Source: Gemmatimonadota bacterium
Lineage (GTDB): Bacteria > Gemmatimonadota > Gemmatimonadetes > Longimicrobiales > Gaopeijiaceae
DNA: 64,000 nt
Assembly: GCA_022823225.1 (NCBI GenBank)
Contig: JAJDXM010000081.1
Span: forward strand, 1 to 64,000
Direction of reading: 5' to 3'
Positions within the stretch are counted from its first letter, which is position 1. Every line of letters begins with the position of its first letter. This document shows, piece by piece, positions 6,511 through 10,179 of the stretch. The translations under genes and the position numbers were made by a program. The notes under the pieces are model-generated. The model was not told the DNA's origin and ran no database searches. It worked only from the letters and a program-made list of their open reading frames with translations.

Positions 6511-6555
6511 GTGATATATCACCGACATGAAGTGACGTAAGATATTGGTATATCA
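6511..6555. promoter_or_regulatory. AT-rich palindromes in a convergent intergenic region
   Basis: Between two gene ends lies an AT-rich stretch unlike its surroundings. It contains the perfect 12-bp palindrome GTGATATATCAC (6511-6522) and, 18 bases on, GATATTGGTATATC (6541-6554), an imperfect inverted repeat. TATATCA at 6515-6521 and 6549-6555 equals the half-site of the perfect palindrome before the PadR gene at 26339-26356. Both flanking genes end here, so the region is not an obvious promoter. It could be a transcription-factor site, a terminator for slow clearance, or a relic. Confidence 0.4.
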
Positions 6556-8691
6556 TAATTTACAAATGCCTACGTAGTTCGGGCGAATCGGCCCCGTCAG
6601 CCTGTTTTGGTCTAGCGCCAGTTCTTCCAATTGGCTGAGGCGACCCAGTTCCGGAGGGATCGGGCCCGTCAGGCGGGTATAGCGGATGACGAGGCGCTTC
6701 AGATTGGTCAGGTTACCGAGTTCTGGCGGGATCGTGCCCGTCAGCGCGTCTACTCCGGGGCCGCCGAGATAAAAAGTCGCCCCGCCGAGCTGCAGTGTTC
6801 GGAGGTTCGCGAGTTTCCCCAGCGCCGGTGGGATGGGGCCCGTAAGTGAGTCGTTCTGCCGGAGATCCAGCACTTCCAGGTTCGCGAGTCCCCCCAACTC
6901 CGGTGGAATCGACCCTGCGACGTCCGTGTTTCTCAGGTACATCACCCGCAGCTTCTGGAGTTGTCCCAGCTCGTGAGGAATCGGACCGCTGAGGTCGTTG
7001 TCATCGAGGTCCAGAGTCTCCAGGGCGGGCAGATTCCCAAGTTCCGGTGGGATCGGGCCGCGCAGGTTGTTGCGGTCCAGATACAAGGACTCGAGGTCGG
7101 TCAGGCTCGCGACTTCCGGCGGGATCGAGCCACTCAGGTTGTTGCGGCTCAGAAACAGGCGCGTAACGCGCCCCCGGTCGTTGAGCCGGATACCCCCCCA
7201 AGTTCGAAGTGGTGCGGGTGTCCCCCAGTTGTGACGGCGCGTCCAGCCAGGACCGCCAGTTGCATGGTAAATGGTATTCAGCGCCGCGCGGTCCGGGCTG
7301 ATTACCGTGATCTCGGCTCTTCCTTCCGCCGCGTCGGAGCGAACTACGATGGTAATCACACCCTCGTCGATCGCCACAACCAGACCGGAATCGTCAACCC
7401 GTGCCACGGATCGCCCGATCTTTGACCAGGCGAACTCCGCATCGGCAATGGGGTGCCCATTCGAATCGTAGGCGCGCGCCCGCAGGCGCAGCGTATCACC
7501 GGGCGCAATGGTATCGGCCGCAGGGGTGACTTCGATGGTCGCCACGCGCTGCCCCACGGTGATCTGTATCTCGCCGAAGATGCCGGGGGCGGCTGTCGCC
7601 GTGATTTGTGCCTCGCCGCGCCCAACCGCTGCCGCGAGCCCCAGCGAGTCGACCACCGCGATCGTCGTGTCCCCGCTCGACCAGGATACCCCTGCACCGT
7701 GTATCACCCGACCCAGCTGGTCGTAAACCGCTGCCGCAAGCGACCGGGTCTGCCCAAGGGCGGTAAACTCGACCGTTTGGGGGTCCACGGTCACGATAGT
7801 TGGTGCCGGAGCCACCGTGACGAACTCGGCACGGCCTGTTACCTCCGAGGAAGTAGCCGTGATGGTGGCTTTGCCCGCGCCCACTCCGGTCGCGAGCCCG
7901 GAGTTGTCCACCACCGCAACCAGGGTGTCGCTCGACGACCAGGCGAACCGAGCCTCGGGCACCGTGTGGCCGTTCGCGTCGGTGGCCGAGGCCGTCATTC
8001 GCAACGTGTCGTCCTGCACGACTGCGGCCGAGTCCGGCGACACGAGCACTTCTGCCACCACCTGCTCCACGGTGACCGCGGCGGTTCCGGAGACCAGGCC
8101 CGCCGTCGCTGTGATGGTCGCTGTACCGACCGTGACGGCCGTCACCAGCCCCGAGCCGTCCACCGATGCGACCGAATTGTCGCTGGACCACTCGAACTCG
8201 ACGCCCGCCACGGCATGGCCGTTGGAGTCCAGCGCCTCAGCCGCGAGCCGCGCCGTCTCCCCGAGGGCAAGAAGCGCCACCGAGTCGGGCGACACGAGCA
8301 CCCCTGCGACCACCTGCTCCACGGTGACCGCGGCGGCTCCGGAGACCAGGCCCGCCGTCGCGGTGATGGTTGCTGTACCGACCGTCACGGCCGTCACCAG
8401 CCCCGAAGCGTCCACCGATGCGATTGCCTGGTCGCTGGATGCGTAGGTCACGACCGCTGCGTCCATGATCTGACCATCCTGATCAAGCACGGTGGCTGTG
8501 AAGCGAATCGTGTCCCCCAGCGCGGACAGCGTCGCTGAAGAAGGCGACACCACAACCGTCGCGGCCATTGGGGACGGCGGTTCCGTAGGTGCGTCTCCGC
8601 AGCCCAGGAACAGGGCCAGGGAGGCCGCAAGGCGCAGCGCAGTCGGCTGACGGTGGCGCGCGACGACGGCCCCGTCTTCCACTCTATTCAC
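6553..8691 (-). CDS. Secreted Ig-like (BIG2) and leucine-rich-repeat lipoprotein
   Basis: A 712-residue protein with an N-terminal lipoprotein signal (LAASLALFLGC, Cys near 31). Residues about 43-470 contain five BIG2 Ig-like domains, recognised by repeats of the type VVVSPSSATLSALGDTIRF...SGLVTAVTVGTATITATAG. Residues about 475-705 are leucine-rich repeats of plant-like type (LSGSIPPEVASLTDLESLYL) with 23-24 residue periods. This is a surface adhesion or binding architecture, not an enzyme. The final repeat breaks off abruptly into RPNYVGICKL where the DNA turns AT-rich, so the 3' end may have been truncated or replaced. Two Ig domains are near-identical at DNA level. Confidence 0.85.
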   Translation of the reverse strand: MNRVEDGAVVARHRQPTALRLAASLALFLGCGDAPTEPPSPMAATVVVSPSSATLSALGDTIRFTATVLDQDGQIMDAAVVTYASSDQAIASVDASGLVTAVTVGTATITATAGLVSGAAAVTVEQVVAGVLVSPDSVALLALGETARLAAEALDSNGHAVAGVEFEWSSDNSVASVDGSGLVTAVTVGTATITATAGLVSGTAAVTVEQVVAEVLVSPDSAAVVQDDTLRMTASATDANGHTVPEARFAWSSSDTLVAVVDNSGLATGVGAGKATITATSSEVTGRAEFVTVAPAPTIVTVDPQTVEFTALGQTRSLAAAVYDQLGRVIHGAGVSWSSGDTTIAVVDSLGLAAAVGRGEAQITATAAPGIFGEIQITVGQRVATIEVTPAADTIAPGDTLRLRARAYDSNGHPIADAEFAWSKIGRSVARVDDSGLVVAIDEGVITIVVRSDAAEGRAEITVISPDRAALNTIYHATGGPGWTRRHNWGTPAPLRTWGGIRLNDRGRVTRLFLSRNNLSGSIPPEVASLTDLESLYLDRNNLRGPIPPELGNLPALETLDLDDNDLSGPIPHELGQLQKLRVMYLRNTDVAGSIPPELGGLANLEVLDLRQNDSLTGPIPPALGKLANLRTLQLGGATFYLGGPGVDALTGTIPPELGNLTNLKRLVIRYTRLTGPIPPELGRLSQLEELALDQNRLTGPIRPNYVGICKL
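8030..8425. repeat. Near-identical direct repeat of one Ig-domain segment
   Basis: About 140 bases at 8030-8173 recur at 8282-8425 with only scattered differences. The period is 252 bases (84 codons), exactly one Ig-like domain of the enclosing gene. This is a recent in-frame domain duplication and a substrate for recombination that would change domain number. Confidence 0.8.
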
Positions 8692-9005: not shown

Positions 9006-9037
9006 ATGACATCATGATGCTTTGATGTTATGATGTC
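9006..9037 (+). promoter_or_regulatory. vapBC promoter overlapped by an inverted repeat
   Basis: ATGACA (9006-9011), a 17-base spacer and TATGAT (9029-9034) match a sigma-70 promoter with one mismatch in each hexamer. The inverted repeat GACATCAT (9008-9015) / ATGATGTC (9030-9037) overlaps both hexamers, as expected for autorepression by a ribbon-helix-helix antitoxin. Transcription would start near 9041, only about three bases before the antitoxin ATG at 9044, so the message would be essentially leaderless. Confidence 0.6.
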
Positions 9038-9043
9038 TACACG

Positions 9044-9268
9044 ATGAGAACCACACTGACGTTGGATACGGACATCTACCAGGCGGCCAGAAGCATCGCC
9101 CGGGAACGCGGGGAGAGCCTGGGCAAGGTGCTGTCCGCCCTGGCGAGAGCGGGCTTGCGGCCCCGCGAACACACGGCGCGCGCTGACGGTTTCCCCATCT
9201 TCGACGTTCCGCCGGAGACGCCGCCGCTCACCTCCGAGATGGTGCGCGACGCCCTGGAGGACCACTGA
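9044..9268 (+). CDS. VapB-type ribbon-helix-helix antitoxin
   Basis: A 74-residue protein. Residues 1-45 (MRTTLTLDTDIYQAARSIA) have the beta-strand then helix-helix pattern of CopG/Arc-type antitoxins: the strand inserts in the DNA major groove. The C-terminal part, rich in Pro (FPIFDVPPETPPLTSEMV), is the toxin-neutralising tail. The stop overlaps the first codon of the toxin. It should bind the VapC toxin and repress the overlapping promoter through the inverted repeat at 9008-9037. Confidence 0.85.
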   Translation: MRTTLTLDTDIYQAARSIARERGESLGKVLSALARAGLRPREHTARADGFPIFDVPPETPPLTSEMVRDALEDH

Positions 9269-9714
9269 CGAAGCTTCTGGACGTCAACGTGCTCGTGGCG
9301 CTCGCGTGGCCGAATCACGTGCATCACGCCGCTGCCCACCATTGGTTCCGGGCGAACCGGGAAGGTGGCTGGGCGACCTGCCCGCTGACCGAGTCCGGAT
9401 TCGTACGGGTGTCGAGCAACCGGCGGGCGATACCGGAGGCGTGTGAACCGCGCGAAGCCATCGCACTTCTCCAGCGGATCCGGGCGCTGGAGGGGCACGT
9501 TTTCTGGGCCGACGACATCTCGCCGGCTGACCCGCTGTGGACGCCGTTTGCCCGCGTCACCGGCTACCGTCAGGTGACCGATGCGCATCTGCTCGCGCTG
9601 GCCATCCGCCACGGGGGGCGTCTGGCGACCTTCGACCGGCGCCTGGCCGAACTGGGAGCAGGGGACTGCCTGGATGCGTTGGAAGTAATCGGTATCGGGG
9701 ATTCGCCGGGCTGA
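9265..9714 (+). CDS. VapC-type PIN-domain toxin ribonuclease (apparent CTG start)
   Basis: A PIN-domain endoribonuclease of about 149 residues. Acidic metal-binding residues are visible in LLDVNVL (Asp6), TESGFVRV (Glu), TDAHLLALA (Asp) and TFDRRLAEL (Asp). The first ATG/GTG/TTG in frame is GTG 9289, which would begin after the essential first Asp (codon 9280-9282). Upstream in frame the only plausible initiation codon is CTG 9265, overlapping the antitoxin stop as CTGA, where related pairs have ATGA or GTGA. The start at 9265 is therefore inferred from the domain and overlap, not from a canonical codon. It would cleave RNA and be held inactive by the upstream antitoxin. Confidence 0.85.
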   Translation: MTKLLDVNVLVALAWPNHVHHAAAHHWFRANREGGWATCPLTESGFVRVSSNRRAIPEACEPREAIALLQRIRALEGHVFWADDISPADPLWTPFARVTGYRQVTDAHLLALAIRHGGRLATFDRRLAELGAGDCLDALEVIGIGDSPG

Positions 9715-9735: not shown

Positions 9736-10179
9736 ATGAAGCGCTGGGGACCGTTCCTTCTGCGGGTGACCACGGGCTGGCTACTGGTCCTGTGGGGTCT
9801 CGACAAACTCCAGAATGTTGCGCACGCCCAGGCGGTCGCGGAGACGTACTACTTCGGGATTGGGACGCAGATGATGGTGCAGCAGATCTTTGGTGTCCTC
9901 GAAACCTTGCTCGGGGCCATGGTCATCCTGGGTCGGCACCGGCGGAGGCTCTACCCCGTGATGCTGGTCGTCCTGCTCTTCACGTCCATCGGCGTCTGGA
10001 AGTCGATCATCGACCCGTGGGGATGGTTCCTCGACGGCTCGAACGTGCTCTTCTACCCGTCGGCGATCATTGCGGCGGGAGCGCTCCTGTTGTGGGGCAC
10101 GATCGACGAGGACGACCTGGCGCTGGATGCGATCATGATGCTCGCTGCACGTACCGGATCGAGCTCTGAACGCTCGTGA
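9736..10179 (+). CDS. DoxX-like membrane protein
   Basis: A 147-residue protein with four hydrophobic segments (about 8-24, 50-68, 75-92, 105-122). The first begins FLLRVTTGWLLVLWGLDKLQN, the typical N-terminus of DoxX/DoxD-like inner-membrane proteins. These proteins are linked to thiosulfate:quinone oxidation or redox homeostasis, but the role here is not defined. It starts 22 bases after vapC and precedes the molybdenum hydroxylase operon by about 105 bases, where a consensus TATAAT (10228-10233) is present without a good -35. Confidence 0.7.
   Translation: MKRWGPFLLRVTTGWLLVLWGLDKLQNVAHAQAVAETYYFGIGTQMMVQQIFGVLETLLGAMVILGRHRRRLYPVMLVVLLFTSIGVWKSIIDPWGWFLDGSNVLFYPSAIIAAGALLLWGTIDEDDLALDAIMMLAARTGSSSERS

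What the first reader, a model, noticed from the sequence alone, without database searches (positions are those of the whole stretch)
9262..9291. VapC appears to start at CTG in a CTGA overlap
The first canonical start (GTG 9289) would delete the essential first Asp of the PIN domain. The only in-frame codon at the right place is CTG 9265, overlapping the antitoxin TGA exactly as ATGA/GTGA does in other pairs. Inefficient initiation would naturally keep toxin lower than antitoxin.
Basis: partly seen in the sequence, partly recalled or inferred. Interest (0 to 1): 0.55.

Follow-up and report, generated by a model that had tools for sequence, protein, structure and literature searches.

The report
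Toxin gene with conserved CTG start
A bacterial growth-stopping toxin gene appears to begin with the rare, weak start codon CTG, which overlaps the end of its antidote gene; the same odd start is kept in related bacteria of several genera, so it is probably a built-in way to keep toxin low rather than an error.

Summary
CTG 9265-9267 overlaps the VapB stop TGA 9266-9268. The VapC frame has no ATG/GTG/TTG from its upstream stop to GTG 9289, which lies past the catalytic Asp. VapC is a TIGR00028 PIN toxin. Of 89 homologues kept, 66 have ATG/GTG/TTG four to eight codons before that Asp; 17 (window included) have CTG at exactly five. The 17 CTG and 4 TTG genes group together (support 82, quick tree), in several genera and two families of the window's phylum. 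Two are in chromosome-level records. So this is neither an assembly error nor a private oddity. All 21 keep the PIN residues. In three orthologues the next canonical start is codon 19. Codon periodicity flips at the junction. GGAGG lies 4 nt upstream in 15 of 17 CTG genes, 1 of 37 GTG, 0 of 16 ATG. A promoter-like pair ends 5-9 nt before the vapB ATG in 19 of 19 genes examined, so the antitoxin mRNA may be leaderless. Most likely the ribosome reinitiates weakly at CUG. Selection for weakness is suggested, not proven. New variant of a known kind.

The parts
9006..9034 (+). promoter-like ATGACA-17-TATGAT with TGATG repeats (possible VapB operator); transcription would start within a few nt of the vapB ATG, so possibly a leaderless antitoxin mRNA
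   Evidence: 10 of 12 matches; 2 sites found in the region, 0.2 expected; such a pair ends 5-9 nt before the vapB ATG in 19 of 19 clade genes examined, 17 of 19 score at least 9 of 12, against 0 of 207 stretches taken 100-600 nt upstream. Operator and leaderless state are inferred
9044..9268 (+). vapB antitoxin, 74 aa, ATG start, TGA stop 9266-9268
   Evidence: intact VapB upstream in 15 of 17 CTG genes; only sub-threshold ribbon-helix-helix hits in Pfam
9256..9260 (+). Shine-Dalgarno GGAGG inside vapB, 4 nt before CTG
   Evidence: same word at same spacing in 15 of 17 CTG genes and 4 of 4 TTG genes of the clade; GGATCACCTCCTTT, the usual 16S 3' end (recalled), occurs once in the genome; the 16S gene itself was not checked
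9265..9267 (+). CTG, inferred vapC start codon, overlapping TGA 9266-9268 (CTGA)
9265..9714 (+). vapC toxin, PIN-domain protein of the TIGR00028 group, 149 aa when begun at CTG
   Evidence: PF01850, 2.4e-10; TIGR00028, 135.3 bits, cut-off 73.6; Asp6, Asn8, Glu43, Asp106, Asp124 in 21 of 21 clade members
9289..9291 (+). GTG, first canonical start; rejected because it removes Asp6 and Asn8 and is not conserved

Best explanation
This is a chromosomal VapBC toxin-antitoxin pair, in a bacterium of the phylum Gemmatimonadota, whose toxin is translated from a CUG codon that overlaps the antitoxin stop codon. Steps shown by sequence: CTG is the only start-like codon where homologues start; it is conserved in a clade; coding constraint switches frame there; a strong Shine-Dalgarno precedes it at fixed spacing in most members. 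Steps inferred: the ribosome ending VapB at UGA is held by GGAGG and reinitiates with initiator tRNA at the overlapping CUG, inefficiently, so that VapC is made at low yield and only where VapB has just been made; the antitoxin itself is translated from a (nearly) leaderless mRNA.
For: (1) Of 89 homologues kept, 66 have ATG/GTG/TTG at 4-8 codons before the PIN Asp, 48 of them at exactly 5; 17 (window included) have CTG at exactly 5. (2) The 17 CTG and 4 TTG genes form one 21-member group (SH-aLRT 82); no CTG outside it among the 89. One later find, L158, is also CTG. (3) In L029, L030 and L035 there is no canonical or listed near-cognate codon between the upstream stop and CTG, and the next canonical start is codon 19. 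(4) Across 14 genes of the genus, upstream variation sits on VapB's third codon positions (0.322 against 0.115 and 0.081), and in codons 2-8 on VapC's third positions (0.297 against 0.000 and 0.091); median dN/dS over 91 pairs 0.15. (5) GGAGG at exactly 4 nt in 15 of 17 CTG genes, 4 of 4 TTG genes of the clade, 1 of 37 GTG, 0 of 16 ATG (energies). (6) TIGR00028 matches from profile position 2 at residue 2, so residue 1 falls at the model's first position. (7) All 21 clade members keep Asp6, Asn8, Glu43, Asp106 and Asp124. (8) Of the 23 other PIN loci of this genome, 22 have a canonical start within 12 codons before the Asp; one (L016) could not be read.
Against: No expression or peptide data. 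The 21-member group is not a starred branch, the tree has few columns and 40 open forks, and L041, L042 and L043 sit on long branches whose place is unsure. In 2 of 17 CTG genes (L041, L043) the Shine-Dalgarno is weak. GGAGG and CTG are both clade-wide, so their pairing is not a set of independent events. L042 and L143 have a VapB whose N-terminus is missing in frame or replaced. Some CTG genes have longer upstream frames that hold distant ATG/GTG/TTG codons (L038, L136, L143). In a mycobacterial selection, CTG was not enriched as a leadered start even with a Shine-Dalgarno (PMC4633059, passages). The 4-nt spacing is on the short side by E. coli standards (recalled).
Confidence: 0.88

Rival explanations
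1. VapC starts at GTG 9289, as a gene finder limited to ATG/GTG/TTG would call it.
For: It is the first canonical start in the frame and is also GTG in L026 and L027.
Against: It removes Asp6 and Asn8 of the PIN motif, kept in 21 of 21 clade members. The codon is GTG, GTT or GTC in 6, 5 and 3 of 14 genus members. Of nine CTG genes checked, the first canonical start is codon 7 in five, 9 in one and 19 in three. Codons 2-8 are under protein-level constraint.
Confidence: 0.03
2. The CTG is a sequencing or assembly error, or the gene is a decayed pseudogene.
For: The genome is a draft of 97 contigs; TA genes decay often (recalled).
Against: CTG occurs in 16 other genomes of the counted set (handles), two of them the same as the chromosome-level records OX638356.1 and OX639991.1. 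dN/dS is 0.15 and the active-site residues are kept.
Confidence: 0.02
3. VapC is made as a VapB-VapC fusion by a -1 frameshift before the TGA.
For: VapC is in the -1 frame of VapB, and an internal GGAGG can stimulate shifting (recalled, dnaX).
Against: No slippery site is apparent: the last VapB codon varies among CAC, ATC, GTC, ACC, TCC, CCC, GCT and AGT, and by my reading none re-pairs after a -1 slip. Most homologues have their own start codon at that place.
Confidence: 0.03
4. CTG is the real start, but its weakness is not selected: the base is inherited by descent and any NTG would do.
For: One clade. In the fair controls 5 of 134, 2 of 73 or (seven representatives) 3 of 81 fourfold columns in the same genes are also all-pyrimidine. 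TTG appears in 4 of 21 members.
Against: The last VapB codon encodes seven residues in 19 genes, always with C or T third, although G would be synonymous in many and is as common in 33 long ORFs of the window (Val GTG 0.44, GTC 0.44). A looser control gave 1 of 148 columns. Median synonymous divergence is near 1.
Confidence: 0.5

Closest known systems
VapBC toxin-antitoxin pairs, TIGR00028 (Mtu_PIN) toxins
   Same: PIN toxin downstream of a small antitoxin gene, here overlapping it by 4 nt; 66 of 89 homologues start with ATG/GTG/TTG near the same codon
   Different: toxin start is CTG, conserved in one clade
KacT4 GNAT toxin of Klebsiella (PMC9431474, passages)
   Same: type II toxin overlapping its antitoxin gene; weak start codon (GUG in 369 of 370, CUG in one); the authors report growth suppression only with AUG in their assay
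   Different: different toxin family, 14-bp overlap; the usual codon there is GUG, and CUG is a single case
FIB plasmid rep gene (PMC11983097, passages)
   Same: CTG start combined with a good ribosome-binding site; often annotated at a GTG 14 codons downstream
   Different: replication protein, not a toxin pair; shown experimentally
Rhs toxin ORF1 of Salmonella (PMC7043789, passages)
   Same: CTG start from which a functional toxin can be made; a small reporter signal for one of two genes
   Different: internal translation within an rhs gene, not VapBC
Type I toxins with non-AUG start (PMC8167048, passages)
   Same: non-canonical start described as a secondary brake on toxin production
   Different: RNA antitoxin

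Membership tests
VapBC type II toxin-antitoxin | toxin with a PIN domain of the VapC type | tested here: met
   TIGR00028 135.3 bits over cut-off 73.6; PF01850 41.5 over 23.6
VapBC type II toxin-antitoxin | acidic PIN active-site residues present | tested here: met
   Asp6, Glu43, Asp106, Asp124 in 21 of 21 clade members; which residues form the site is recalled
VapBC type II toxin-antitoxin | small antitoxin gene directly upstream, overlapping | tested here: met
   intact in 15 of 17 CTG genes
VapBC type II toxin-antitoxin | antitoxin with a DNA-binding fold | tested here: inconclusive
   RHH_4 E 0.064 and DUF6364 E 0.0085, both under cut-off
VapBC type II toxin-antitoxin | ribonuclease toxicity neutralised by the antitoxin | not testable with these tools
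   needs expression assays
CTG-initiated bacterial genes | start shown by N-terminus, reporter or start-codon mutation | not testable with these tools
   only comparative evidence here
CTG-initiated bacterial genes | no canonical start available at the homologous position | tested here: met
translationally coupled overlapping pair (termination-reinitiation) | NTGA overlap with Shine-Dalgarno inside the upstream gene | tested here: met
translationally coupled overlapping pair (termination-reinitiation) | toxin translation depends on antitoxin translation | not testable with these tools
   needs reporter constructs

The most novel reading that the evidence does not exclude
A toxin lineage in which natural selection keeps a weak, pyrimidine-first start codon (CUG, sometimes UUG) in a CUGA overlap, balanced by a strong Shine-Dalgarno, while the antitoxin is translated from a leaderless mRNA: two different initiation modes on one short transcript set the antitoxin-to-toxin ratio, and would respond differently to stress that alters ribosomes.
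Probability: 0.35. Interest if true: 0.65.

Novelty: new variant of a known kind. Interest (0 to 1): 0.5.

Why it matters
CTG starts are rarely annotated: one paper cites 20 of nearly 85,000 genes in model bacteria (PMC11983097, passage). A clade of toxins that needs CTG would be truncated or missed by gene finders restricted to ATG/GTG/TTG. It also gives a naturally replicated case of a possible codon-level brake on a toxin, testable with simple reporters.

Tried and rejected
First junction script gave no anchor for many loci, mainly those lying on the minus strand; replaced. First paralogue script anchored only six loci; replaced. Viral contigs: two pattern matches, no relative. Plasmids: 106 records with relatives, all under 60% identity, not used for the start-codon count. 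A first control for pyrimidine conservation looked stronger (1 of 148 columns) than the fair one with the same 13 rows (5 of 134; 2 of 73 when all 13 rows are fourfold; 3 of 81 with seven representatives); the fair one is relied on. RNA folding around the start gave no shared structure by eye (six sequences). Considered and rejected: start at GTG 9289; start at codon 2 (ACC 8, ACG 5, ACA 1 of 14) or codon 5 (CTG 11 of 14, otherwise CTT, CTC, CCG); frameshift fusion; sequencing error. Structure prediction was not run, as it could not decide the start codon.

Rows dropped before counting: 132 loci went into; L040, L047 and L068 lack the N-terminus at a contig end; 19 were merged with an earlier locus of identical 120-base context (L072 and L137 among them); 110 were left. 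Of these, 21 were left out of the 89: 17 under 45% identity, 3 without the anchor Asp (L050, L129, L133) and L051 (CTG, 91 aa, no recognisable VapB upstream). The 19-row tests are the 21 clade members less L042 and L143, whose VapB lacks its usual N-terminus.

Literature: 10 searches. No title or abstract start in the listings named a CTG-started VapC; only part of each hit list is shown and most papers were not opened. In two papers on overlapping gene pairs, 'CTGA' does not occur in the main text (PMC6728339, PMC10666635). All this covers only the held open-access library.

Full report
The junction. In the window, vapB (9044-9268) ends ...GAG GAC CAC TGA and the vapC frame reads CTG ACG AAG CTT CTG GAC GTC AAC across the same bases. 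The vapC frame is open from 9187 and contains no ATG, GTG or TTG until GTG 9289. The product from CTG is 149 aa and matches TIGR00028 over residues 2-131 against profile positions 2-133 at 135.3 bits (cut-off 73.6), and PF01850. Starting at GTG 9289 would delete Asp6 and Asn8.

Homologues. Relatives were collected from whole genomes of the order (35 of 154 with a match at E 0.001), of the phylum (42 of 395 at E 1e-8) and from the species-level genome collection (best 80 of 105 relatives kept). Of 132 loci, 110 distinct junctions were read and 89 passed filters on identity, anchor and length. Of these, 66 have ATG/GTG/TTG four to eight codons before the Asp (48 at exactly five) and 17, the window's own included, have CTG at exactly five. 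Of the remaining six, five have a canonical start 9-12 codons before the Asp; the sixth (L074, Myxococcales) has ACG where its nearest relatives mostly have ATG.

One group. On a tree of the 89 proteins (142 columns, quick method, 40 open forks) the 17 CTG and 4 TTG members fall in one group of 21 (SH-aLRT 82, not starred), with no CTG elsewhere among the 89; 4 changes of the CTG label against a shuffled mean of 15.8. L041, L042 and L043 are on long branches, so their exact place is unsure. The group holds genera g1, g17, g34, g36 and g37 of family f1 and g85 of family f7, all of the window's phylum; contigs of the same lengths in the named collection are titled Gemmatimonadetes, Gemmatimonadota or Longimicrobiales, which is how I name the phylum. 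A further g85 locus found later is also CTG (L158); it resembles L136 closely and adds little independence. L035 and L038 correspond to the chromosome-level records OX638356.1 and OX639991.1.

Why this codon is the start. For nine CTG genes I listed every canonical and several near-cognate codons between the upstream in-frame stop and the CTG: eight have none, and one (L041) has an AAG 30 codons upstream. Downstream, the first canonical start is codon 7 in five, 9 in one and 19 in three (L029, L030, L035). Some other CTG genes have longer upstream frames with ATG, GTG or TTG codons (L038 at 82-83, L136 at 88-90, L143 at 39-99 codons before the Asp); these are not shared across the clade. Codon periodicity in 14 genus members switches from VapB's frame to VapC's frame at the junction, and codon 2 is Thr in 14 of 14 by three different codons. 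Median dN/dS over 91 pairs is 0.15 (first 135 codons, compared without gaps). All 21 group members keep Asp6, Asn8, Glu43, Asp106 and Asp124, and end in a stop codon after 142-197 codons. So the toxin is maintained.

Initiation context. GGAGG lies exactly 4 nt before the start in 15 of 17 CTG genes and 4 of 4 TTG genes of the group, against 1 of 37 GTG and 0 of 16 ATG homologues (pairing energies). L041 and L043 have only weak pairing. The pairing of strong Shine-Dalgarno with weak codon resembles the FIB rep gene, where the authors suggest that CTG with a good ribosome-binding site gives just enough expression (PMC11983097, passages). Because both traits run through one clade, they are not independent events.

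Upstream. A promoter-like pair ends 5-9 nt before the vapB ATG in 19 of 19 clade genes examined; 17 of 19 score at least 9 of 12, and 0 of 207 stretches 100-600 nt further upstream do. 17 of 19 show no Shine-Dalgarno-like pairing before vapB; L135 and L136 have a weak one. This predicts a leaderless or nearly leaderless vapB mRNA; TGATG repeats in the same stretch may be the VapB operator (inference).

Is weakness selected? The base before TG is the third base of VapB's last codon. In 19 genes that codon encodes seven residues, yet the base is C (15) or T (4), never G or A. In 33 long ORFs of the window, G-ending codons are about as common as C-ending ones for several of these residues. As a control, among other codon columns of the same genes restricted to the same 13 fourfold rows, 5 of 134 are all-pyrimidine (2 of 73 when all 13 rows count; 3 of 81 with seven representatives); a looser control gave 1 of 148. 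I take this as suggestive only. Of the 23 other PIN loci in this genome, 22 have a canonical start within 12 codons before the Asp and one could not be read, which argues against a general use of CTG in this genome.

Known relatives. The closest functional precedent is KacT4, a type II toxin with a conserved GUG start (369 of 370; one CUG) that suppressed growth only when the codon was made AUG (PMC9431474, passages). A functional CTG-started Rhs toxin is reported (PMC7043789, passages), and non-AUG starts are described as a brake on type I toxins (PMC8167048, passages). One study groups several E. coli type II pairs as keeping toxin synthesis low at the level of translation (PMC5535158, passages). 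A start-stop overlap read as translational coupling is reported for a VapBC pair (PMC4701950, passages). Against easy CTG use, a mycobacterial selection did not enrich CTG (PMC4633059, passages). I therefore place this as a new variant of a known kind: a VapBC pair with a clade-conserved CTG start.

Noticed in passing
window 9736-10179; L026, L028: A DoxX-like gene follows vapBC in the window; in L026 and L028 two DoxX-like genes lie in the fetched stretch, one on each side of vapBC, and in L027, L029, L030 and L035 one was found. The pair may sit in a fixed chromosomal slot beside a duplicated DoxX gene.
   Followed up: partly
L032 and L143 (one genome, about 4 kb apart): Two vapC copies in one genome: one starts TTG behind an intact VapB, the other CTG behind a VapB whose N-terminal part is different.
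   Followed up: partly
L074: A Myxococcales homologue has ACG where its nearest relatives mostly have an ATG start, with the next upstream canonical codon 22 codons earlier; possible ACG initiation or an error.
   Followed up: no
window 6553-8691, minus strand: Large predicted protein with repeated Ig-like-looking segments and leucine-rich-looking repeats (impression from the translation; no family search run; its first 400 residues matched only the window's own locus among the 22 loci compared).
   Followed up: no
L042: CTG-started vapC behind a VapB that lacks its usual N-terminus in frame: possibly a damaged antitoxin or a sequence error.
   Followed up: no
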